Assembly (NCBI RefSeq): GCF_003217155.1
Contig: NZ_QJSU01000003.1
Coordinates: 124,001 to 188,000, forward strand
Origin: Psychrobacter fozii
GTDB taxonomy: Bacteria; Pseudomonadota; Gammaproteobacteria; Pseudomonadales; Moraxellaceae
Reading direction: 5' to 3'
DNA length: 64,000 nucleotides
Program-made: the position numbers and the translations under genes
In this document: in pieces, positions 8,755 through 21,021 of the stretch
Layout of the letters: the number at the start of each line of letters is the position of its first letter
Numbering within the stretch: the first letter of the stretch is position 1
The notes under the pieces: generated by a model
Seen by the model: the letters and a program-made list of their open reading frames with translations, nothing else
What the model was told of the DNA's origin: nothing
Databases searched by the model: none

Positions 8755-10056
8755 TTAAGGCGTAGGACTAACCACCAATACATTGTCCAAACCTTGCCAC
8801 ATGTCATCAACGCTATCGCTTGAAGTCTCCACGCACAACACAATCAAATTCCAATCGCTAGGCTCAACGTTATAGGCAAAGTTAGTCATACCAAGCCCAT
8901 AATTATCGCTAAAGCTTAGCATGGTGGTAATCGCACCACCTAAAGCAATGGGTGATCTTGTCAAAGCGCTAAAGTTAACCGTAGCCGTTGCCTCAGAGTC
9001 TTTAGCCTGACTTTCAAGCCATTCAGCCAATAAAAACGGCAGCCATACAAACTCATTACTGCCTAATACTAGAATTCGTTCAGGCAACTGCTGTTTGTCA
9101 AACGGTGCTTGATCACTAAAACTCGTCAATGCTGCTTGAAAGCTCTTCAGATAGTTATCGAATCCATCGGTACTATCGAGTGTGGGGAAGCGTCCCCACT
9201 TGCCCGTGTTGCCTAATGACTGACTACCAGCGTCAGTGGTATCGACCGATGGCATGATGATGGGTTCAGGATTGGGCGCATCCGTCCATTGCCAAGCGCC
9301 AGATAATAGGTGATGACGATGAAAGTCAATGTTCGGCAAGCGAGCAGATATGGAGTCGTCTATATCTGCTGCATCTTGATTCTGACTTAGAGACCAGTCA
9401 ACCAACGTGGTGAGATGCACTTGCTCTAATTGGCTTAGCCCTGCATTGCATAATGCTGTGACGACATTGACGCAAGTATTACCCGTTGACGCTTCATCGT
9501 CGACCATAATCAGAGTTTTACTGGCCAGTAGCTGCGCTTGCGTGGCTTTATCAGAGCTTTGATAAATGAGATGCTGGCTAGCATGGCTGTGGTCTTCGCT
9601 GAATGTGGTCAGCAACGTTTCACTGTTATCATCATTGTGTTGCGCATGACGCGTAGAGTTCAACAATAAAGCATTAGGGTAACGCGTTTGTAGTGCTTGA
9701 TGGACGCCAGCCGATAAGCCAACGGCCGTCTCTGCCATACCAATAACCAAAATCGGCTCAGGTAAATCGCTAGGCACTAAGTTTGCCAAATCCGTAAAAG
9801 CACTACGCATCGTACTAGGCGCTACCGGAATATGACGGCCTAAAACCTTTGATACGAATAAAAATGCACGTTTTGGGTTAATACGTTGGGCAAATCCGAG
9901 TAAGTCTTCTAATTGATAGTTGTCATCTTTTTGCGAGTCATTTTTAGCCGCTGCTGGATTAATTTTATAGGTCAGATCAAGCGTACCACGAGGTAAAGAG
10001 ATACTTCGCTTATAAGTTTTATTAGATGTCGTATTGTTTTTAGAATCAGTTATCAC
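8755..10056 (-). CDS. Phosphoribosyltransferase with C-terminal TRSP domain
   Basis: A 433-aa two-domain protein. The N-terminal part (about 20-250) has the PRTase core: ILVIGMAETAVGLSAGV (about 103-119) and the PRPP-binding loop LIMVDDEASTGNTCVN (about 182-197). The C-terminal part (about 325-433), with RILVLGSNEFVWLPFLLAEWLE, matches the TRSP domain found after PRTases in Ter islands. It would transfer a ribose-5-phosphate to or from a base-like acceptor. Its start overlaps the end of the NYN-TerD gene by 11 bases, indicating translational coupling. Confidence 0.85.
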   Translation of the reverse strand: MITDSKNNTTSNKTYKRSISLPRGTLDLTYKINPAAAKNDSQKDDNYQLEDLLGFAQRINPKRAFLFVSKVLGRHIPVAPSTMRSAFTDLANLVPSDLPEPILVIGMAETAVGLSAGVHQALQTRYPNALLLNSTRHAQHNDDNSETLLTTFSEDHSHASQHLIYQSSDKATQAQLLASKTLIMVDDEASTGNTCVNVVTALCNAGLSQLEQVHLTTLVDWSLSQNQDAADIDDSISARLPNIDFHRHHLLSGAWQWTDAPNPEPIIMPSVDTTDAGSQSLGNTGKWGRFPTLDSTDGFDNYLKSFQAALTSFSDQAPFDKQQLPERILVLGSNEFVWLPFLLAEWLESQAKDSEATATVNFSALTRSPIALGGAITTMLSFSDNYGLGMTNFAYNVEPSDWNLIVLCVETSSDSVDDMWQGLDNVLVVSPTP

Positions 10057-11368
10057 TTAGTTCTACTCCATATTTTTCACAGAGATAACGTAGGTCGCCA
10101 TCTATATTTTGATGTTTTGGCACAAACTGCCATTGGTTGCCAGTTCGGTTTAACGTAAATAATATTAGGCTTTTACCTGATTTATTTTGGACGTCAAATT
10201 TGCCTGAGAATAATAATGTATTTTGTTGCTCATCAGTGATATTTAATTCAATACTGGTTTGCTGTGGGTCAATTGCTAAGCTTCCCAATTCACTTGATAG
10301 CACGAAGTTAAGTTGTTCAATGCTAGTAGGTTGATGGTTTAGATCACAACTAAACTCAGAGACTGATGTATTACTTTCGAGCTGTTGGTTTAGCTCGATT
10401 GAACCATCCTCGCTATGCGTTTGACCATAAAATATCATATCTTCATCACCGCGTACCTTTGCAGTGGGAGTCACTCTAAATAAGACGGCATCGATAGTAG
10501 GTGCTGTTGATATTTTGACAAGAATAGGAGCAGCTGGGAACAGGTTAGAAGTTGGCTTAGTATTAATTGTTTTTTTATTAGCAGTTGTAGCGGCTGTTAA
10601 TGCCTTCTGTATTTTAATCTTTGCCCACATGCCATTAGATTGCTTTCTAATATCATATAAACGCAATGCAATCATTAAATTAGAAAATTTATCATAGCCA
10701 TACTTATCGAGTTTGATGTCATTATGGTTTTTACTAAGCTCGCTGGCTATATAAGATAGATTCGACCAACCATTATGGGCGTTAATATTTTCTTTGATTA
10801 TTTTATTTAATAAGTTAATTAAGTGCGTTTGTGTTTGTAACTGTTTAGTCGTCCATTGTTTTGATGAATTATTATTAGGTGCTCTTTTAGGAGAAAGGGT
10901 TGTTTGCGTAGAATTGCTATTATTCTGATCGACCAATAAATCTTCTACGTAAAAGAATTTATCACAAGCCCGCGAAAACGCGCTAACCGTGTTACGCTTT
11001 CCAAAGCCAAATACTTTTACATGGTTTTTGCGAATGCGTAAAGCCAGTGAGGTAAAGTCACTATCACTTGATATGAGACAAAATCCATCATAGTTATTGC
11101 TATACAGCAAATCCATGGCTTCGATGACCATGCCTATATCAGTGGCATTCTTGCCTTTAACATAAGCGAATTGCTGCATAGGATCGATAGCATATTTAAG
11201 TAATGCTTCTTGCCAACTTTGAATATGAGTATTTCCCCAATCACCATATATTTTTTTGCAAGTAATATGACCAAGCTTTTCTATTTCTTGCAAAATATGG
11301 CCAATATTTTTTGCTGATGCATTATCAGCATCGATAAGTATGGCTATATTTTTGAGCTGAGCTGACAT
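10046..11368 (-). CDS. NYN-domain nuclease fused to a LOTUS/OST-HTH domain and a TerD-like domain
   Basis: A 440-aa three-domain protein. Residues 5-145 are a NYN (PIN-like, LabA/DUF88) RNase domain with the full acidic set: D13 and D15 in LIDADN, D77 in NATDIG, D102 and D104 in SSDSDF. Residues about 175-255 resemble a LOTUS/OST-HTH RNA-binding winged helix. Residues about 285-437 are a TerD-like domain with KVRGDEDMIFYGQT, very close to the N-terminal domain of the TerA protein at 16704. The Ca2+-binding GDNRTGxGDGDDE motif of classic TerD is absent. It probably cleaves RNA under Ter control (inferred). It is the second gene of the leftward operon. Confidence 0.85.
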   Translation of the reverse strand: MSAQLKNIAILIDADNASAKNIGHILQEIEKLGHITCKKIYGDWGNTHIQSWQEALLKYAIDPMQQFAYVKGKNATDIGMVIEAMDLLYSNNYDGFCLISSDSDFTSLALRIRKNHVKVFGFGKRNTVSAFSRACDKFFYVEDLLVDQNNSNSTQTTLSPKRAPNNNSSKQWTTKQLQTQTHLINLLNKIIKENINAHNGWSNLSYIASELSKNHNDIKLDKYGYDKFSNLMIALRLYDIRKQSNGMWAKIKIQKALTAATTANKKTINTKPTSNLFPAAPILVKISTAPTIDAVLFRVTPTAKVRGDEDMIFYGQTHSEDGSIELNQQLESNTSVSEFSCDLNHQPTSIEQLNFVLSSELGSLAIDPQQTSIELNITDEQQNTLLFSGKFDVQNKSGKSLILFTLNRTGNQWQFVPKHQNIDGDLRYLCEKYGVELSDN

Positions 11369-11440: not shown

Positions 11441-12676
11441 TCAACCTTGACAGCCAACCAGCCATAGCGCACTACGGCTTTGTTTGCTCAACTGCGGTGT
11501 GGTTAGTGGTGGCACTTTTGTATGAGGCGAGTCTGATAAATCACCTAAGCCAATGCCAGCACTGGCCAGTAGGGCAGATAATAACTGAAATTTCACTGCA
11601 TAGTTCATGTTTTGTGCATGCTCGTGGACGAGGCTAGAGGTTACCATGCCGACAACTTCACCAGTAGGCAGTAATAAAGGGCTGCCACTAGATCCGGGCT
11701 GAATGGGTGCGGTGAATTGCATATAGCGAATATCATCGCCAAACCCTGTCAGACCTGAGATACAACCTTGCGTGACTTGCAGTTGGCTACTTAGTCCTGA
11801 CAGCGGGAATCCCAATGTCGTAATGGTCTCTCCCAAATTATCAGAGCATCGCTGTGCTAATGGCAAATAGCTAGGCAGAGGTTCGCTCACTCGAATAATA
11901 GCTGAGTCGCTGCCAATATCGCTGAGGACTACTTGCGCTTCGCGATCAGGTTGGCCTTGCTGACGGATACCAATCATCGCCGCCGACTCAATGACATGAT
12001 AGCAGGTCAATAGGTGATAGGGGTCAATAGCGAATGCCGTTCCCGTCCAAGTTTCGCCAGGCTGAACGTGACGTGGGGGACGCGACTCGTTGTTTGGCTG
12101 AGTTCGCTGTTGCTGCTGAGCCGCTTGAATTAGCGCATGCGTATCTGGCGGACGGGTATCGAGACTGATTCCGACTCGATGCTCTACGCTTGCTAGTCCT
12201 TGCGTAGAGCTTTCACCCAGTGCACGGCATTTAAACTGGCCATTACGTCGATATATTTCCAATACAATGGCGGCTTTAATATGACGCTCATTTGCAGTGA
12301 AATCATATTTAATCGCGCCATTATTGAGTGTTAGACAGATATTGTTGAGCTCAATCGCTGGCAAGTTGAGGCTTGGATCATGATAAACATATGCAATCAG
12401 TTGCAAAGAAACAACAGCTTGCGTATCAAACAGTTTGGTCAAATCTAGCTGCCATACGTTTGGATTATTATTATCGTCTAACTGAGCCCAGTCCTTAGGC
12501 TCATGAAGATAGGCAGGACTACAAGCTGCTTTACGATGTTCATCTAACGGCAGCCATATCAGTCCAAGTTGCTGCCCAAATATAAGCTGGTCTGTTGTAG
12601 AAAAAGCAACCGAACAATTAGATTGCGTGATAATCGTATTTGCTCCTAGCACTAACGCGGTCTGTACAGTCATCAT
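11441..12676 (-). CDS. TerD-like domain fused to a trypsin-like (S1C/DegP-type) serine protease
   Basis: A 411-aa protein. Residues 1-175 form a TerD-like domain (strands ending KAAIVLEIYRRNGQFKCRALGE). An Ala/Gln-rich linker (about 180-205) precedes a trypsin-like domain, about 208-375. The triad is visible: H227 in LLTCYHVIE, D257 in GSDSAIIRV and S330 in PGSSGSPL, with the supporting GxGxxF-like opening TGTAFAI. No signal peptide or PDZ domain is seen, so it should act in the cytoplasm. It is the first gene of the leftward operon and has a 718-base regulatory region upstream. Its targets are unknown. Confidence 0.85.
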   Translation of the reverse strand: MMTVQTALVLGANTIITQSNCSVAFSTTDQLIFGQQLGLIWLPLDEHRKAACSPAYLHEPKDWAQLDDNNNPNVWQLDLTKLFDTQAVVSLQLIAYVYHDPSLNLPAIELNNICLTLNNGAIKYDFTANERHIKAAIVLEIYRRNGQFKCRALGESSTQGLASVEHRVGISLDTRPPDTHALIQAAQQQQRTQPNNESRPPRHVQPGETWTGTAFAIDPYHLLTCYHVIESAAMIGIRQQGQPDREAQVVLSDIGSDSAIIRVSEPLPSYLPLAQRCSDNLGETITTLGFPLSGLSSQLQVTQGCISGLTGFGDDIRYMQFTAPIQPGSSGSPLLLPTGEVVGMVTSSLVHEHAQNMNYAVKFQLLSALLASAGIGLGDLSDSPHTKVPPLTTPQLSKQSRSALWLVGCQG

Positions 12677-14997: not shown

Positions 14998-15000
14998 TGA

Positions 15001-15106
15001 TATAGTTGATTCAGTTAAAGAGAGAGTCAAAGCAACCGAGTACAGAGGTATATGTGATATCTCAAGCGAGGTTAACATGTCACTCTTTTATAGAGGATTA
15101 ACTATA
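15001..15106 (+). repeat. Dispersed intergenic repeat, family R1, full-length copy
   Basis: Starts TATAGTTGATTCAGTTAAAG and ends TAGAGGATTAACTATA, with imperfect terminal inverted repeats and an AGCGAGGTTAAC core. It has about the same length as the 33996-34102 copy, which is in the opposite orientation. It begins 3 bases after the MHYT stop. Confidence 0.8.
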
Positions 15107-15144
15107 AGCCATTGTTGTTCTGTTTATTGAATGGTTAATACAAT

Positions 15145-15183
15145 AAAAAGGTTTTTAGATATTATTCTAAAAACCTTTTTTTG
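15145..15183. terminator. Bidirectional terminator between MHYT and ATP-grasp genes
   Basis: AAAAAGGTTTTTAGA-TATTA-TTCTAAAAACCTTTTTTT forms a long stem flanked by A and T runs in a convergent gene gap. Confidence 0.9.
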
Positions 15184-15223
15184 TGTGGAATAGCTGATGT
15201 ATAGCTAAGGGATTATCTACAGT

Positions 15224-16372
15224 CTAATCCATTGTAGTTTCTTCGATTTTTACACCCATCATGATTGAACGTACTTGGCAAGGTACTATCTTTTGAGCGA
15301 TATCAGCTAGCCTTGGTTTATCAGTCAAGCCTAACCAGTATGCAAAGCCGACCTGTGTTAAATCCACACCGCTATGAGTTGTGTAGCCAATACCACCAGA
15401 TGGGCGACTATTAATCTCAAGTACACGGTGCTGACCCTCATCATCGGCCTTGGTTTGTACACTGACGATACCATCACAGTTGAAAGCTTTGATTAATGGA
15501 ATGACGACATCCATAACGGATTGCTCGTAGCCGATATGCTGGATTTTCCCTGTTTTATAACGAGTAATAGCGGCCAGTACTTCACCATATTCGCATGCTA
15601 CATCGATAGAGTACTCTTGCCCTGACAAGTAAGGCATTAATAGCATTGGAATAGGGCGCTCATGCACCATTAAGCTGTTTGTATACGCATTTATAAATTG
15701 GGCAGTGCTGATTTTCTTCTCTTCGGTAAAGTATAAATGCTCAAAGCTATCGTATTTCTCTTCTTCTGTTTTACCTAAATCTAACCGCCAAAACCCTTGC
15801 GCAAAAATACCAGTGACTGGTTTGACACACAAAGGCTGATGGCCATGTTCGGCAAGTAGCGCCTCAAGCTGCTCAGTCGTATCAAAGCGCCACGCATCAG
15901 CGACAGGTATGTCATGAGAATGGCACTGTTGCATAAAAGCAAATTTATCATCGATTGATTCTAACGATGCAACACTGGTTGCGCCGGTCAATAAGCGAAT
16001 ACCTGCTGCATCAAATACCTCTCGATGGGCCTCATAATCAATACCATTTCGACCAGTCAATAATACCTTTACGTTGTGCTGTTGAGCCTGTTCTAGGACG
16101 AACTGCCAACGCGGTATAACGGGCTCAGGTTCAACGTCCACTTCATCGAGGCTACCTATAGAAGCTATAGTAGGTTCAAGATAGACATCATCCGCAAACT
16201 CAAAAATTTCAGGTCTATCGTGACGGTGTGAGGCGATGATATTGAATGGTGTCTCAGATTGGGTCTTTAATGCTTGTAAGCTGGCTAACATATCACGCTG
16301 GCTTGACTGGCCTTCGGCTAACCAAGCTGCAGTTGGCGTTGTATGGTGACTATCGTTAGCAATGTTATGCAT
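15224..16372 (-). CDS. ATP-grasp ligase of the Ter-associated pathway
   Basis: A 382-aa ATP-grasp enzyme. The ATP-binding Lys region is HQPLCVKPVTGIFAQGF (about 175-191). The metal-binding and carboxylate region is VSVQTKADDEGQHRVLEINSR (about 303-323), followed by PSGGIGYTTHSGVDL. These are the conserved ATP-grasp core with the Glu-x-Asn pair. It should join a carboxylate to an amine or thiol via an acyl-phosphate. ATP-grasp genes of this type accompany the PRTase/HAD/aldolase module in Ter islands, so it probably completes the same metabolite. It is transcribed divergently from terA across a 331-base gap. Substrate unknown. Confidence 0.85.
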   Translation of the reverse strand: MHNIANDSHHTTPTAAWLAEGQSSQRDMLASLQALKTQSETPFNIIASHRHDRPEIFEFADDVYLEPTIASIGSLDEVDVEPEPVIPRWQFVLEQAQQHNVKVLLTGRNGIDYEAHREVFDAAGIRLLTGATSVASLESIDDKFAFMQQCHSHDIPVADAWRFDTTEQLEALLAEHGHQPLCVKPVTGIFAQGFWRLDLGKTEEEKYDSFEHLYFTEEKKISTAQFINAYTNSLMVHERPIPMLLMPYLSGQEYSIDVACEYGEVLAAITRYKTGKIQHIGYEQSVMDVVIPLIKAFNCDGIVSVQTKADDEGQHRVLEINSRPSGGIGYTTHSGVDLTQVGFAYWLGLTDKPRLADIAQKIVPCQVRSIMMGVKIEETTMD

Positions 16373-16703
16373 AATTCTCTCAGCAGTATCATAAGTGTTA
16401 GATATAATTGGATAACGAAATACCGTTATCGCAAAACCAACAGCAATCTAGATAAGCTAAAAATGTAGTTAACCATCCAAGTCATCATATTGCTGATAGT
16501 AGCGCTATTATATACAAATGCTAGGCGTTATAAATGATACTGATAAAATAGTATGAACAAGAATGCTTAAGATTTATTGTGGGGTTTTTAGTACTTAACA
16601 GAAGGCGTGTACCGACTAAAAATCTTGTAATAACCGTGCTACTATATGCTGATAGTAGACATAATAAATACATCGATATAATAAATAAATGAAAGGATGA
16701 GTA
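16373..16703. promoter_or_regulatory. Divergent promoter region of the ATP-grasp and terA genes
   Basis: No gene is seen in these 331 AT-rich bases. The 12-base word TGCTGATAGTAG occurs twice in the same orientation, at 16491-16502 and 16647-16658. A repeat of this length in a short divergent promoter is a candidate binding site for a common regulator. No promoter boxes are assigned. Confidence 0.4.
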
Positions 16704-17984
16704 ATGAGTCAAACCCTAATTGCAGGTGCCAATGCGCCACTACCGACGGACAATATTAGTATTCGTATCTTAAGCCAAAATGCGATTGATTGTGCTGCTT
16801 ATCGCCTAACTGCCGATGGTAAAGTGCGCGGTGATGGAGACATGATATTTTATGGGCAGACACGTAGCGATGATAGCAGTGTCAGCTTTCGTGGTCACGA
16901 CAGCGATGGCTTTTTTGACATCAATTTGCCAGCTCAACCTGCAAATATTGAAAAGATAGCGCTCGCATTTTCTAGTGATAAAACACTTGCTCAAGTCGGT
17001 GATGTTGATATTCAAGTATTACAAGGCAGTCAAGTACTGATGACTTGTCAGCTCAGTAGCGCAGGCCGTAATGAAAAAGCGATTATTTTAGCTGAGTGCT
17101 ATCGTAGGCAGGGCAGTTGGAAGTTTAGATTTATTGCTCAAGGTTTTGAAGGTGGTCTAAAACCTTTGTCAGAGCATTTCGGTGTTGAGATTGCTGATGA
17201 AGCGCCAGTTCAGAATCAGCCACAGAGTCAAGCCCAAAACCAGTCACAGAGTCAGGCTCAACCTATCAACACGCAGCGTCCAATCAATACTCAAAAACCG
17301 GGTAGCGCCCCTCAAGCAAACACACCACCACCGATACCAGCCAATCCCGCCATAAATCTGAGTAAAGTTACCTTAACTAAAAATCAATCTAGCATCAATC
17401 TCAAAAAACGCGATGATTTTGGTAAAATTACTGTGAACTTAAACTGGAATCAACGACCGAATGCTGATCAGCAAGCACCTAAAAAAGGTCTCTTGGGTGA
17501 TCTGTTCAAGCAACATAAAGCGGGTGGTATTGATCTGGATGTTGGTGCGATGATTCACCTGAAAAATGGTGAAAAGACGCTTATTCAAGCATTGGGTAAT
17601 CGTTTTGGTAGCTTGCAATCAGCGCCTTATGTTTGTCTGCGTGCCGATGATAGAACAGGGCAAATAAGTGGTGGTGAATGGCTGGATATCAATGGTCAGC
17701 AGTGGTCGCAGATTGAGGAGGTCTTTATCTTCGCCTTTATCTACGAAGGGGCTCCGAACTGGGCACAAACAGATGGCGTGGTCACCATTGCCGTACCAGA
17801 GCAGCCACCGATTGAAACGCGTTTAACAGAAGGCACAGGCAACTTGCCCATGTGTGCAATCGCTCGTTTGGTCAATCAACAAGGCAGTATCAATGTTGAG
17901 CGTATCAATCAATACTTTAAAGGTCACCAAGAAATGGACAAAGCCTTTAATTGGGGATTTAGCTGGAAACGTGGTAGTAAGTAA
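16704..17984 (+). CDS. terA: TerA-type tellurium/stress-resistance protein (two TerD-fold domains)
   Basis: A 426-aa protein. Residues about 15-165 are a TerD-like domain with GKVRGDGDMIFYGQT and CYRRQGSWKFRFIAQGFEGGL. Residues about 170-215 are a Gln/Asn/Pro-rich linker. Residues about 220-426 match the TerA C-terminal domain (LKKRDDFGKITVNLNW, GGIDLDVGAM, a C-terminal FNWGFSWKRG). The total length is close to that of known TerA (about 385). The N-terminal domain lacks the GDNRTGxGDGDDE calcium motif. AAAGGATGAGT precedes the start. TerA is part of a membrane-associated Ter complex; exact biochemistry is unsettled. The Shedu gene follows 61 bases downstream on the same strand. Confidence 0.85.
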   Translation: MSQTLIAGANAPLPTDNISIRILSQNAIDCAAYRLTADGKVRGDGDMIFYGQTRSDDSSVSFRGHDSDGFFDINLPAQPANIEKIALAFSSDKTLAQVGDVDIQVLQGSQVLMTCQLSSAGRNEKAIILAECYRRQGSWKFRFIAQGFEGGLKPLSEHFGVEIADEAPVQNQPQSQAQNQSQSQAQPINTQRPINTQKPGSAPQANTPPPIPANPAINLSKVTLTKNQSSINLKKRDDFGKITVNLNWNQRPNADQQAPKKGLLGDLFKQHKAGGIDLDVGAMIHLKNGEKTLIQALGNRFGSLQSAPYVCLRADDRTGQISGGEWLDINGQQWSQIEEVFIFAFIYEGAPNWAQTDGVVTIAVPEQPPIETRLTEGTGNLPMCAIARLVNQQGSINVERINQYFKGHQEMDKAFNWGFSWKRGSK

Positions 17985-18045
17985 GTCGCATCATTGAAGG
18001 TATCTCTATTTCAGATAGTAGATTAAAGACAGTTTGGAGAAAACA

Positions 18046-19269
18046 ATGAATAGACCAGAGCCTTTCACTGTAAATGAGGTTATCCTTTCTCTAATGAAAG
18101 TTTTAGAGGATAATTATTTTAAAGTTATTTTTGATGAAATAGACAGAAGCCCTGATTTAGAAAGTACAACTCCTGGGCTTATAGTAAATCCAGATATTAT
18201 TACGATTTATATGGGTAAAGAGCATATTGTAATAGAGTTTTCTGGCTCAGAAGTTTTGAGAAAGGATTTTAAAGAGCGTTATGGTTTTGAAGTAAGGTTT
18301 TTTGACTTTTCGCTAAATGATGGTAGTTTGTTAAAAAATATTTTGGGGTTTGGGAAAGATTATAATAATAGATTTTCTCCTCCAATTTTTGGTGATGTAT
18401 TCGATTTAGTATGGGCAACGGACGACGGATATGAGAAGCTTAGAGAGTTAAGATGGAACTATTTTGCTCAAGATATGATGTTGATAATGGGTTCTTCTAT
18501 ACCAACAGTAGTCTCAGGTAGCGCATGTAGTTTAATAAATTCTTTCTTTTTCGATGCTAATGAAACGGGTTTGAAAACTAGACACATAAAATGGATGAAT
18601 TTCATTCCTATTATTTATGATGATGCTGATAGCAGGCATGATACATTTAAGATTAATGAGGGACTTATAAGAAAAATAGCTATTGAGAATGCGCATACTG
18701 TTTATCCCTTGCCTGAAGAGTATAAAAATATTCACTTGCCAAAGATTAATAGATTTATTGAGCTTTGGGGTAATGAAGAAACATCAGAGCCACAGATAAC
18801 TAAATTCTTAGAAGAAAATAGTTTTATCTTAAAAATGGCATTTGGTGCTACTGATATATATGCTGAAAAAGAATGTATTTGGCAGACAGAAAACAAAAAA
18901 TCTATCAGACCTGACTTTTTTATCAAACGACCTCATAGAGTCGATATTGTAGAGTTTAAACTCCCTACTATGAAAAGTAGCTCTATTGTAGGTAGAGAAA
19001 ATAGAGAGTCTTTTTCCGCTCAGTTAAACTCTTATGTAGCCCAGACTAGAACGTATGCTAATTATTTTAATGATCCAAATAATAGAATATGGGTACAAGA
19101 AAAGTATGGTATAGACGTCTACAAACCCCGACGTATCTTGATCATCGGACGTAGAGCAAATTTTGATAGAGAAGAGTGGAGAGAAATAGTTGCTGATTAT
19201 AATAATTTTGAGGTTATGACATTTGATGATTTGGTAGATGGGGTCGTCGCTCAGTTCTATCATGAATGA
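18046..19269 (+). CDS. Shedu-family (DUF4263) anti-phage nuclease, SduA-like
   Basis: A 407-aa protein. The C-terminal half (about 240-400) carries the DUF4263 nuclease signature: ITKFLEENSFILKMAFG (251-267), the PD-(D/E)xK core with D290 in RPDFFIK and E303-x-K305 in IVEFKLP, Q333 in VAQTRTYANYF, and the PRRILIIGRR strand (361-370). Residues 1-230 are an unrecognised sensor region. Shedu proteins protect against phage by cleaving DNA. The ATG at 18046 has TTGGAG 6 bases before it; an upstream TTG at 18034 is less likely. The gene is more AT-rich than terA before it, suggesting separate acquisition, yet it sits in the terA transcript. Confidence 0.8.
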   Translation: MNRPEPFTVNEVILSLMKVLEDNYFKVIFDEIDRSPDLESTTPGLIVNPDIITIYMGKEHIVIEFSGSEVLRKDFKERYGFEVRFFDFSLNDGSLLKNILGFGKDYNNRFSPPIFGDVFDLVWATDDGYEKLRELRWNYFAQDMMLIMGSSIPTVVSGSACSLINSFFFDANETGLKTRHIKWMNFIPIIYDDADSRHDTFKINEGLIRKIAIENAHTVYPLPEEYKNIHLPKINRFIELWGNEETSEPQITKFLEENSFILKMAFGATDIYAEKECIWQTENKKSIRPDFFIKRPHRVDIVEFKLPTMKSSSIVGRENRESFSAQLNSYVAQTRTYANYFNDPNNRIWVQEKYGIDVYKPRRILIIGRRANFDREEWREIVADYNNFEVMTFDDLVDGVVAQFYHE

Positions 19270-19287
19270 GAACTGAATTACTGTATA

Positions 19288-19323
19288 AAAATACGCTGTT
19301 GAGCTATGTCAGCAGCGTATTTC
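19288..19323. terminator. Bidirectional terminator between Shedu and terZ
   Basis: AAATACGCTG (19288-19297) pairs with CAGCGTATTT (19313-19322) across a 15-base loop in the convergent gap. Confidence 0.75.
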
Positions 19324-19346
19324 CTTAATTGTAAATAGCTCAATAC

Positions 19347-19955
19347 CTACGCATGCGGTGTGATAGCAGGCATCAAGTCATGAAAAGTGCGACCAGACGC
19401 TGTTTCACCAATGGCATGCATTTTCCATTCATTGTTATGGCGATAGACTTTTGCCATTACCATCGCTGTGTGTCCACCTTGCGCTGATAAGTTATAGCGG
19501 GCAACTTCTTGGTTGTTATTGGCATTGACGATACGACAAAATGCATTTTCTACGGTCTCAAAAGTCTGACCAGTAAAGCTATTGACGGTAAATACCAGCG
19601 ATACAACATTAGCAGGAATTCTAGATAGGTCTACGTTGATGACTTCATCATCGCCATCGCCATCACCCGTACGGTTATCACCAGTATGTACAATGCTGCC
19701 ATCTTTTGATTTTAGCTGACTGAACCAAATAGCATCGACCGCCTGTTTATTGCTATCAAACATGATGCATGAGGCATCAAGATCGATAGAGTCGCCACCA
19801 CTACCGCCACCGAATAATTTACCTAAGAACCCACCTTTTTTCTCTTGTGGACCTTGTGCGACGTCCCAGCCTAAACCTAGTTTTACCTGCGTGAGGTCAC
19901 CACCAGCTTCTTTGCTAAGTGAGATTTTTTGACCTTTTTGTAAGCTAACTGCCAT
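19347..19955 (-). CDS. terZ: TerZ-type TerD-family protein
   Basis: A 202-aa TerD-fold protein. KLGLGWD is followed by a Gly-rich insert (GGFLGKLFGGGSGGDS, about 41-56), then SIDLDASCIMFD and [19 protein letters not shown] (about 90-108), the Ca2+-binding signature. VFTVNSFTGQTF and the C-terminal GRTFHDLMPAI are specific for TerZ rather than TerD/TerE. AAGGAT precedes the ATG. It acts with other TerD proteins in tellurite, colicin and phage tolerance in known Ter operons. It is followed by a shared terminator with the Shedu gene. Confidence 0.9.
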   Translation of the reverse strand: MAVSLQKGQKISLSKEAGGDLTQVKLGLGWDVAQGPQEKKGGFLGKLFGGGSGGDSIDLDASCIMFDSNKQAVDAIWFSQLKSKDGSIVHTGDNRTGDGDGDDEVINVDLSRIPANVVSLVFTVNSFTGQTFETVENAFCRIVNANNNQEVARYNLSAQGGHTAMVMAKVYRHNNEWKMHAIGETASGRTFHDLMPAITPHA

Positions 19956-20099
19956 ATGATTATCCTTATAGTATCAATATTGAGAAATATGAACTGAGTG
20001 TAGTGTTACCACTCGTCTTCCTTGCTATCTAAGTTTTTAAAAATGTTGTAATAGTTCTGAGTAAAGCGTCGAATAAAAACTGTATATGACAACGTCCAG

Positions 20100-20852
20100 T
20101 TATAAGATATTACCTAACAAGCCATTACTACCACCGCGACCGCCTGAGCTACTACCCAGGACACTTTGTAGCCAGCCTTGGTAGCTATCACGATTGCGTG
20201 AACAGATAATGACTTTGCCAGTACCAGAGAAGTTCAATACCATGCCTTCACCACTGGTGACGGAGTTGATGATATTGCTCATGAATCCTTTTTTCTTGCT
20301 GGTAGATACTGACAGCTTATAATCTAAGTTGGAGTCCCAGCAGACCACGTGACCATTATCGATGATAACGTCTTTACCTGCTTCTACATCGATCTCGAAT
20401 AGTGAGCCAAACCCTGATACCACGACCTGACCTTGGCCTTGTGTTTGCATAACCATAAAGCCACCAGTATCACCAAATACTGCACCGCCAAGGTTGCGTT
20501 GAATATTGGCTCTGATATCGACTCCAGTTTGTGCCGCGACAAAAGCGCCATCGCTCAACGTATACTGCTGAGCACCGCAATCAATGATTTGCATATCACC
20601 ATCGAGCGTGGGCGCAAGCAAGCAATCACCTTCACCATTGACCGCTTCGATTTGCTGTTGAAATAATGACTCATCATTAGCAAAACGGCGCATAAGTGAC
20701 TGCATCAACCCGCCTTGCAGCTTACCTTTGAGCTCAAGGTTTGATTCCATCATCACCATTGCATTGGCTTCACAATAAATCGAGTCGCCTTTTTTGAGAT
20801 TACAATGTAAAAAAGGTTCGATGGTACCGATTAAGCTAAATGTTGCGGCCAT
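20100..20852 (-). CDS. AIM24/TIGR00266-family protein
   Basis: A 250-aa beta-rich protein of the AIM24 (DUF124) family. Recognisable parts are the opening FSLIGTIEPFLHCNLKKGDSIYCE, MVMMESNLELKGKLQGGL (about 33-50), FGDTGGFMVMQTQGQG (about 148-163) and the closing FSGTGKVIICSRN, followed by a Gly/Ser tail. In Ter islands such proteins sit next to terD genes. The family also includes a mitochondrial inner-membrane factor, but molecular function is unknown. ATG at 20852 is chosen, 10 bases after AAGGA; a TTG three codons upstream (20861) lies too close to that site. Confidence 0.8.
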   Translation of the reverse strand: MAATFSLIGTIEPFLHCNLKKGDSIYCEANAMVMMESNLELKGKLQGGLMQSLMRRFANDESLFQQQIEAVNGEGDCLLAPTLDGDMQIIDCGAQQYTLSDGAFVAAQTGVDIRANIQRNLGGAVFGDTGGFMVMQTQGQGQVVVSGFGSLFEIDVEAGKDVIIDNGHVVCWDSNLDYKLSVSTSKKKGFMSNIINSVTSGEGMVLNFSGTGKVIICSRNRDSYQGWLQSVLGSSSGGRGGSNGLLGNIL

Positions 20853-20980
20853 GACTTGCAAATCCTTATTCTAATTTTTTAATATGTGCGCTTGATAGCT
20901 ATGTTTATGGCTGTTTATGTATATGGTTCTATATAAGCTATCTTCAAGACTTTGGCTTTTTGGGTTAGCCAATTAAAATT

Positions 20981-21021
20981 AAAGCCATCAAATGCGTTAA
21001 AAGGGCACACTTGATGGCTTA
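20981..21021 (-). terminator. Probable terminator of the terE-like gene
   Basis: On the minus strand AAGCCATCAA and TTGATGGCTT pair across a 20-base loop and are followed by a moderately T-rich stretch. It lies about 80 bases past the gene's stop. Confidence 0.5.

What the first reader, a model, noticed from the sequence alone, without database searches (positions are those of the whole stretch)
18046..19269. Shedu (DUF4263) nuclease in the terA transcript
Catalytic D290, E303-x-K305 and Q333 are present. The gene is 61 bases downstream of terA, is more AT-rich than its neighbours and is bounded by a terminator. A known anti-phage nuclease directly behind terA suggests functional integration or defence-island hitch-hiking. 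The 230-residue N-terminal domain is unrecognised.
Basis: partly seen in the sequence, partly recalled or inferred. Interest (0 to 1): 0.75.

Follow-up and report, generated by a model that had tools for sequence, protein, structure and literature searches.

The report
Lone Shedu defence gene behind terA
A known kind of bacterial anti-phage DNA-cutting gene (Shedu) has been dropped, by gene transfer between species, into a small gap next to a tellurite-resistance gene that also hosts other unrelated passenger genes, so its position looks like a landing site and not a working partnership.

Summary
In detail: window 18046-19269 (+) encodes a 407-residue Shedu protein, 61 bp behind terA, with D290, E303-x-K305 and Q333, AT-rich and followed by a terminator-like hairpin. 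It matches a full-length Shedu model (PDLC00383, E 1.9e-148), and its modelled C-terminal half resembles solved Shedu nucleases (Z 13.8 and 13.5). Residues 1-222 match no Pfam domain above cut-off. In Psychrobacter the gap between terA and the converging terD is about 130 bp, but exceeds 600 bp in 15 of 95 copies, with at least four unrelated cargoes (LytS/LytTR/DcuC set, ion-channel gene, cysteine-rich ORF, Shedu). Shedu occurs in 2 of 105 genus genomes. In the second, P. immobilis, break points place an IS630-type element between terA and Shedu. Fourfold-degenerate sites agree 88% in Shedu between the two species but 41-68% in six neighbouring genes, so Shedu spread laterally. No TerD-domain ORF was found around other Shedu genes (26 loci, about 24 distinct genes). 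Best reading: an ordinary stand-alone Shedu in a permissive accessory slot, perhaps read from the terA transcript, with no evidence of a Ter-specific role. A new member of a known kind.

The parts
16704..17984 (+). terA (TerD-domain protein, 426 aa), upstream neighbour
   Evidence: Pfam TerD E 4.1e-28; matched in 96 of 105 genus genomes at E 1e-30
17975..17976 (.). TA dinucleotide in the last codons of terA at which the homologous site of P. immobilis (G020) is interrupted by an IS630-type element
   Evidence: contig break points; TA checked; element ends repeated in that genome; element type
17985..18045 (+). 61-bp terA-Shedu gap without terminator-like or promoter-like site on the + strand; GGAG at 18036-18039 as likely ribosome-binding site
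18046..19269 (+). shedu (sduA), 407 aa, Shedu nuclease
18046..18711 (+). N-terminal part, residues 1-222; conserved within PDLC00383 relatives; no Pfam hit above cut-off; barely tested by the fold comparison
18712..19266 (+). C-terminal PD-(D/E)XK nuclease part, residues 223-407 (SduA_C 246-397)
18913..19044 (+). active-site span: D290 (18913-18915), E303 (18952-18954), K305 (18958-18960), Q333 (19042-19044)
18465..18465 (.). best-fit breakpoint of the mosaic between the two Psychrobacter alleles (68 differences before, 20 after)
19289..19322 (+). intrinsic-terminator-like hairpin after shedu; near-identical sequence follows shedu in P. immobilis
19347..19955 (-). terD (202 aa), converging neighbour, right border of the accessory slot
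   Evidence: Pfam TerD E 2.9e-56

Best explanation
The gene is a stand-alone Shedu anti-phage nuclease, probably of the type I kind. A conserved N-terminal sensor/regulatory part holds a C-terminal PD-(D/E)XK nuclease in check until it meets the right phage DNA substrate, probably DNA ends as in E. coli SduA, and the nuclease then cuts that DNA. It reached this genome by lateral transfer inside Psychrobacter, entering the permissive gap between the converging terA and terD, probably by recombination in conserved flanks, replacing the terminator found in empty sites and bringing its own. It may be partly read from the terA promoter, but it serves no Ter-specific function. Shown: gene, domain, active-site residues, fold of the C-terminal half (model), empty and otherwise filled sites, lateral signal, lack of Ter linkage in the other loci examined. 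Inferred from the literature: end sensing, autoinhibition, phage restriction. Inferred from anatomy: read-through from terA and the recombination route.
For: SduA_C 53.5 bits; PDLC00383 over residues 2-405, E 1.9e-148. D290/E303/K305/Q333 invariant in 10 of 10 aligned sequences, the window's included, and aligned with D/E/K/Q of an EcSduA-like protein. The model (mean pLDDT 72.9) matches EcSduA 8ps4 at Z 13.8, 179 residues, 3.7 A, and BcSduA 8ti9 at Z 13.5, 166 residues, 3.0 A, both within residues 223-407; the first non-Shedu row is Z 8.6. Slot: terA-terD gap median 130 bp, above 600 bp in 15 of 95 copies, against terD-AIM24 1 of 68 by the strict rule or 0 of 92 by a looser one, AIM24-terD2 0 of 62 and ATP-grasp-terA 0 of 28. 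Other cargo: LytS/LytTR/DcuC, ion channel, cysteine-rich ORF. Lateral transfer: fourfold-site identity G000-G020 97/110 in shedu against 65/158 terA, 39/88 terD, 54/122 ATP-grasp, 50/104 AIM24, 54/80 terD2, 95/160 terC. Relatives on viral contigs and a plasmid sit among prophage, plasmid or defence-like genes (several labels recalled).
Against: No activity or expression data. The N-terminal part was not matched to the EcSduA clamp, so end sensing by this protein is by analogy only. The gap carries no recognisable promoter and no terminator, which would fit deliberate co-transcription with terA. The lateral case rests on two genomes, one of them broken into contigs at this very point. Fourfold identity also varies among the neighbours (0.41 to 0.68). 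Slot counts are not corrected for shared ancestry. No donor was seen, so the recombination route is inferred.
Confidence: 0.85

Rival explanations
1. Functional integration: Shedu is the nuclease arm of the Psychrobacter Ter system, co-transcribed with terA so that envelope or metal stress sensed by Ter proteins arms the nuclease.
For: 61-bp gap with no + strand terminator-like or promoter-like site and only weak folding of the gap (-6.3 kcal/mol). Ter genes have long been linked with phage resistance (passages of PMC5822837).
Against: Shedu in 2 of 105 genus genomes while terA is in 96 of 105. Empty in the two best terA matches. P. immobilis keeps an intact Shedu although the break points put an element with an antisense transposase between the genes. 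No TerD-domain ORF in 26 other Shedu loci, about 24 distinct genes.
Confidence: 0.07
2. Defence-island hitch-hiking: the ter cluster is a defence island that gathers anti-phage genes.
For: A defence gene does lie in the slot; some remote relatives of this Shedu lie near other defence-like genes.
Against: Of 6 other cargo proteins scanned with PADLOC, 5 had no hit and 1 a weak response-regulator hit. Of 15 flanking genes scanned, hits are limited to an HtrA-like protease (best E 9.1e-18 to RT-Protease_XI), an NYN protein (E 0.014) and an RlmL-like methylase (mad2, E 1.2e-24), read here as cross-matches.
Confidence: 0.05
3. Vertical inheritance with repeated loss: the ancestor of Psychrobacter had Shedu here and nearly all species lost it.
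For: Same site and near-identical trailing hairpin in both species.
Against: Shedu is more alike at fourfold sites than each of the six neighbouring genes compared (97/110 against 357/712 pooled). Absence in 103 of 105 genomes would have to be loss.
Confidence: 0.05

Closest known systems
E. coli SduA (EcSduA, PDB 8ps4/8ps5), called type I Shedu in PMC12904381
   Same: C-terminal nuclease half: Z 13.8 over 179 residues, 3.7 A; D/ExK/Q active-site columns align (through an EcSduA-like protein); similar length (407 against 411 residues)
   Different: 17% identity in the aligned part; N-terminal parts did not align by sequence and the listed structural match covers residues 223-407 only
Bacillus cereus SduA (PDB 8ti8, 8ti9)
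   Same: nuclease domain, Z 13.5 over 166 residues, 3.0 A
   Different: 20% identity; N-terminal part not matched
PADLOC SduA model PDLC00383 (full-length subfamily)
   Same: whole length, residues 2-405 to model 2-407 of 408, E 1.9e-148; 7 of 7 aligned sequences match it
   Different: no difference in layout seen; relatives examined lie in prophage-like, plasmid or defence-like contexts, none beside a TerD-domain ORF

Membership tests
Shedu (SduA) | SduA_C (DUF4263) domain | tested here: met
   PF14082 53.5 bits, cut-off 27, residues 246-397
Shedu (SduA) | PD-(D/E)XK catalytic residues D, E-x-K and the downstream Q | tested here: met
   D290, E303, K305 in place, with Q333 invariant in 10 of 10, aligned to D/E/K/Q of an EcSduA-like protein
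Shedu (SduA) | nuclease fold of solved Shedu proteins | tested here: met
   Z 13.8 and 13.5 to 8ps4 and 8ti9 over residues 223-407; model mean pLDDT 72.9
Shedu (SduA) | full-length match to a Shedu model | tested here: met
   PDLC00383 E 1.9e-148; 7 of 7 aligned sequences likewise
Shedu type I, EcSduA-like | N-terminal clamp that binds DNA ends | tested here: inconclusive
   sequence comparison aligned only the C-terminal part; fold list covers residues 223-407; the N-terminal part could not be folded alone (both jobs used)
Shedu (SduA) | oligomer (tetramer) and phage restriction | not testable with these tools
   needs protein and phage assays
Ter system component | conserved linkage to ter genes across genomes | tested here: not met
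   2 of 105 genus genomes carry it; no TerD-domain ORF in 26 other Shedu loci (about 24 distinct genes, 398,511 bases), while the same search found 6 in the window
Defence island | further defence genes beside it | tested here: not met
   15 flanking genes between 7.9 and 27.8 kb scanned with PADLOC: three with hits, read as cross-matches (protease, NYN protein, rRNA-methylase-like)

The most novel reading that the evidence does not exclude
The N-terminal 222 residues are a Shedu sensor of a kind not yet solved, and the sensor and nuclease halves have separate histories. Between two Psychrobacter alleles the first 140 codons carry 68 of 88 nucleotide differences and 31 of 39 amino-acid-changing codons, while the rest is nearly identical. 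This would mean that species keep or renew their own sensor while sharing the nuclease, and that the terA-terD gap is an exchange slot for such alleles.
Probability: 0.2. Interest if true: 0.5.

Novelty: new member of a known kind. Interest (0 to 1): 0.25.

Why it matters
It removes a tempting but unsupported link between tellurite-resistance genes and an anti-phage nuclease, and puts a testable genome-dynamics picture in its place: a convergent-gene gap that tolerates unrelated cargo. The pair of alleles with a shared nuclease half and a diverged sensor half offers a natural experiment on what the N-terminal part of a Shedu recognises.

Tried and rejected
Rejected: Ter integration, defence island, vertical inheritance (see rivals). 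The hits of the N-terminal profile to two PDB chains named 'Iron Transport-associated domain protein' (E 0.0005-0.003) cover one short stretch and were set aside as likely chance. Foldseek against viral models gave only nuclease-like or unnamed matches at low TM-scores. The first structure model with 7 sequences was too poor to use (mean pLDDT 51.5). Genome-contig, phage and first viral-contig searches with the single protein found 1, 0 and 0 relatives; the alignment-based viral scans found 8 distinct contigs in all, and further single-protein viral scans added none. No Rfam match at 15000-21000, no tandem repeat at 17000-20000. The two primary Shedu structure papers are not in the library; their content is taken from passages of two later papers. 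No paper in the library holds both Shedu and Psychrobacter; the 15 papers listed for Shedu with tellurite terms show no occurrence of Shedu (676 papers met the looser rule). An earlier count said 16 gaps above 600 bp; the correct count is 15. In one search glutaminase found no partner in the G020 stretches and was left out of the fourfold comparison.

Full report
What is there. The ORF at 18046-19269 (+) is open and encodes 407 residues. All the stated particulars hold: catalytic positions, 61-bp gap, AT-richness (GC 0.330 against 0.447 and 0.445 in the flanking genes), hairpin at 19289-19322.

What the protein is. Pfam SduA_C matches residues 246-397 (53.5 bits, cut-off 27). The PADLOC model PDLC00383 matches residues 2-405 at E 1.9e-148 and a second Shedu model, PDLC00377, residues 18-403 at 9.8e-27; NCBIfam gives nothing. 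D290, E303, K305 and Q333 are invariant in 10 of 10 aligned sequences, the window's included, down to 39% identity. A profile comparison with a protein that is itself close to solved EcSduA (8ps4, E 1.1e-92) aligns only the C-terminal part, with these four columns falling on D, E, K and Q (probability 59.8, E 8.8e-5). An AlphaFold2 model from 10 sequences (mean pLDDT 72.9, pTM 0.54) matches EcSduA 8ps4 (Z 13.8, 179 residues, 3.7 A) and B. cereus SduA 8ti9 (Z 13.5, 166 residues, 3.0 A), with the first non-Shedu entry at Z 8.6. These matches concern residues 223-407. For residues 1-222 nothing comparable was listed, which is inconclusive because the domain could not be searched alone. Sequence searches of PDB with this protein or its alignments gave no Shedu hit.

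How it probably works. [quoted passage not shown] By analogy this protein senses a phage DNA feature with residues 1-222 and cuts with the C-terminal domain. That step is inferred; only the nuclease part is supported here.

The site. In the genus, terA was found in 96 of 105 genomes at E 1e-30. I could measure the distance from the terA stop to the converging terD in 95 copies from 94 genomes (G081 has two copies). Not measured were G020 (L015/L034) and G041 (L073), where the contig ends; a first short stretch of G013 (L029) was replaced by a longer one (L103). The median is 130 bp; 15 of 95 exceed 600 bp. These 15 are Shedu in the window, a LytS-type kinase + LytTR regulator + DcuC-family transporter set in 6 (Pfam run on one of the six, L103), a cysteine-rich ORF in 5 (one weak zinc-ribbon hit below cut-off, none in a second copy; shortened or split in 3 of the 5), an ion-channel gene with RCK and Castor/Pollux parts in 1, a 962-bp gap with small ORFs in 1, and a 703-bp gap without an ORF of 60 codons in 1. 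Of 6 of these cargo proteins scanned with PADLOC, 5 had no hit and 1 a weak response-regulator hit. Gaps beside it are quieter: terD-AIM24 above 600 bp in 1 of 68 by the strict rule and in 0 of 92 by a looser one (of 98 loci, the 6 unmeasured are loci that end before AIM24), AIM24-terD2 in 0 of 62, ATP-grasp-terA in 0 of 28. The last two were measurable in only part of the loci because the fetched stretches are short, and species are not independent samples. Empty sites such as G068 fold into a strong hairpin in the gap, which the window's terA-Shedu gap lacks.

Lateral spread. Shedu is in 2 of 105 genus genomes and, by PDLC00383, in 3 of 348 family genomes (the third, G290, has two pieces on two contigs, 36% and 50% identical to the window's protein). 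The genomes whose terA is closest to the window's (G068 and G070, 99%) are empty. In G020 (P. immobilis) the gene sits at the same border: one contig ends in the last codons of terA at the TA of window 17975-17976, the other resumes at the same TA with the Shedu leader. Both contig ends carry the ends of a multi-copy element. Their edge frames, read antisense to terA and to Shedu, resemble the C-terminal and N-terminal ends of ORFs of a related element elsewhere in the same genome, which match HTH_Tnp_IS630 and DDE_3; the short edges alone gave no Pfam hit. That the two contigs adjoin is inferred, since they were not joined. Fourfold-degenerate sites between G000 and G020 agree in 97 of 110 for Shedu but in 65 of 158 for terA, 39 of 88 for terD, 54 of 122 for the ATP-grasp gene, 50 of 104 for AIM24, 54 of 80 for terD2 and 95 of 160 for terC (pooled Fisher p 2.8e-15; glutaminase found no partner). 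Shedu has therefore been shared more recently than these neighbours.

A mosaic. The two Shedu alleles differ at 88 nucleotides, 68 of them before window 18465 and 20 after (max-chi-square scan; 0 of 1000 shuffles as strong). Synonymous changes follow the same split (26 of 140 codons against 12 of 267, p 8e-6), as do amino-acid changes (31 against 8). Even the first 140 codons are more alike at fourfold sites (25 of 34) than terA (65 of 158; p 0.001). dS is 0.43 for codons 1-175 and 0.08 for the rest. This looks like recombination that renewed the C-terminal part, with an older N-terminal part; dN (0.095 and 0.011) is below dS in both, so positive selection is not shown.

Context of relatives. 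Plasmid relatives: Pantoea sp. S18 and Azospirillum lipoferum 4B, both about 45% identical; the Pantoea one lies among plasmid genes with an annotated Dsr1 defence gene about 8 kb away. Eight distinct viral contigs carry relatives of 39-49% identity; one of them (L152) looks like the same Azospirillum stretch again. Contexts: beside a SIR2-like gene and near a phage integrase (L148), in a tail-gene module between baseplate-type genes and a Phage_tail_S gene (L150; L168 looks alike from its ORFs), beside a tape-measure-like ORF (L169), within some kilobases of Vsr-like and cytosine-methylase genes (L149, L152), near an nSTAND3 gene and an IS30-like transposase (L151), and near three recombinase-like ORFs (L170) (labels are tool results, the others are read from ORF sequences and recalled). 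In the class sample, 16 of 369 genomes have SduA_C at E 1e-5, and 2 of 369 match PDLC00383 at E 1e-20, the window's genome counted in both. In 26 loci around other Shedu genes (398,511 bases, 3 to 31 kb each; about 24 distinct genes, since G290 and the Azospirillum gene each appear twice; the three viral contigs L168-L170 were not in this search) no TerD-domain ORF was found, while the same search found 6 in the window.

Transcription. The promoter scan of 16300-20200 found no + strand site within 17985-18045, and it found as many sites overall as expected by chance (12 against 11.3), so it has little power. Read-through from terA is plausible and unproven. In P. glacincola BNF20 the ter genes were described as separately promoted by prediction, with terA opposite to the rest (passages of PMC5822837).

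Verdict. Observation confirmed; interpretation partly supported. An ordinary Shedu gene in a permissive slot. Its sensor part remains the interesting unknown.

Noticed in passing
window 17985-19346 and homologous sites in loci L018, L019, L024, L071, L102, L037, L076-L078, L081, L103, L091, L092, L095: The convergent terA-terD gap of Psychrobacter is an accessory slot: above 600 bp in 15 of 95 copies, with at least four unrelated kinds of cargo.
   Followed up: partly
window 10046-11368 (-): A single ORF joins an NYN domain, an OST-HTH/LOTUS domain and a TerD domain.
   Followed up: no
window 11441-12676 (-): A single ORF joins a weak TerD-like stretch (25.2 bits, cut-off 25.3) with an HtrA-like trypsin domain.
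   Followed up: no
loci L018, L024, L102 against L019, L071: The cysteine-rich ORF in the terA-terD gap is long in two genomes and shortened or split in three, as if decaying.
   Followed up: no
G048 contig C36 (26333-27588): terA of this genome is matched only in pieces with several stops inside.
   Followed up: no
L150:5953-7191 and L168:3989-5224: Two viral contigs carry this Shedu type as an extra gene in what looks like the same slot of a tail-gene module.
   Followed up: partly
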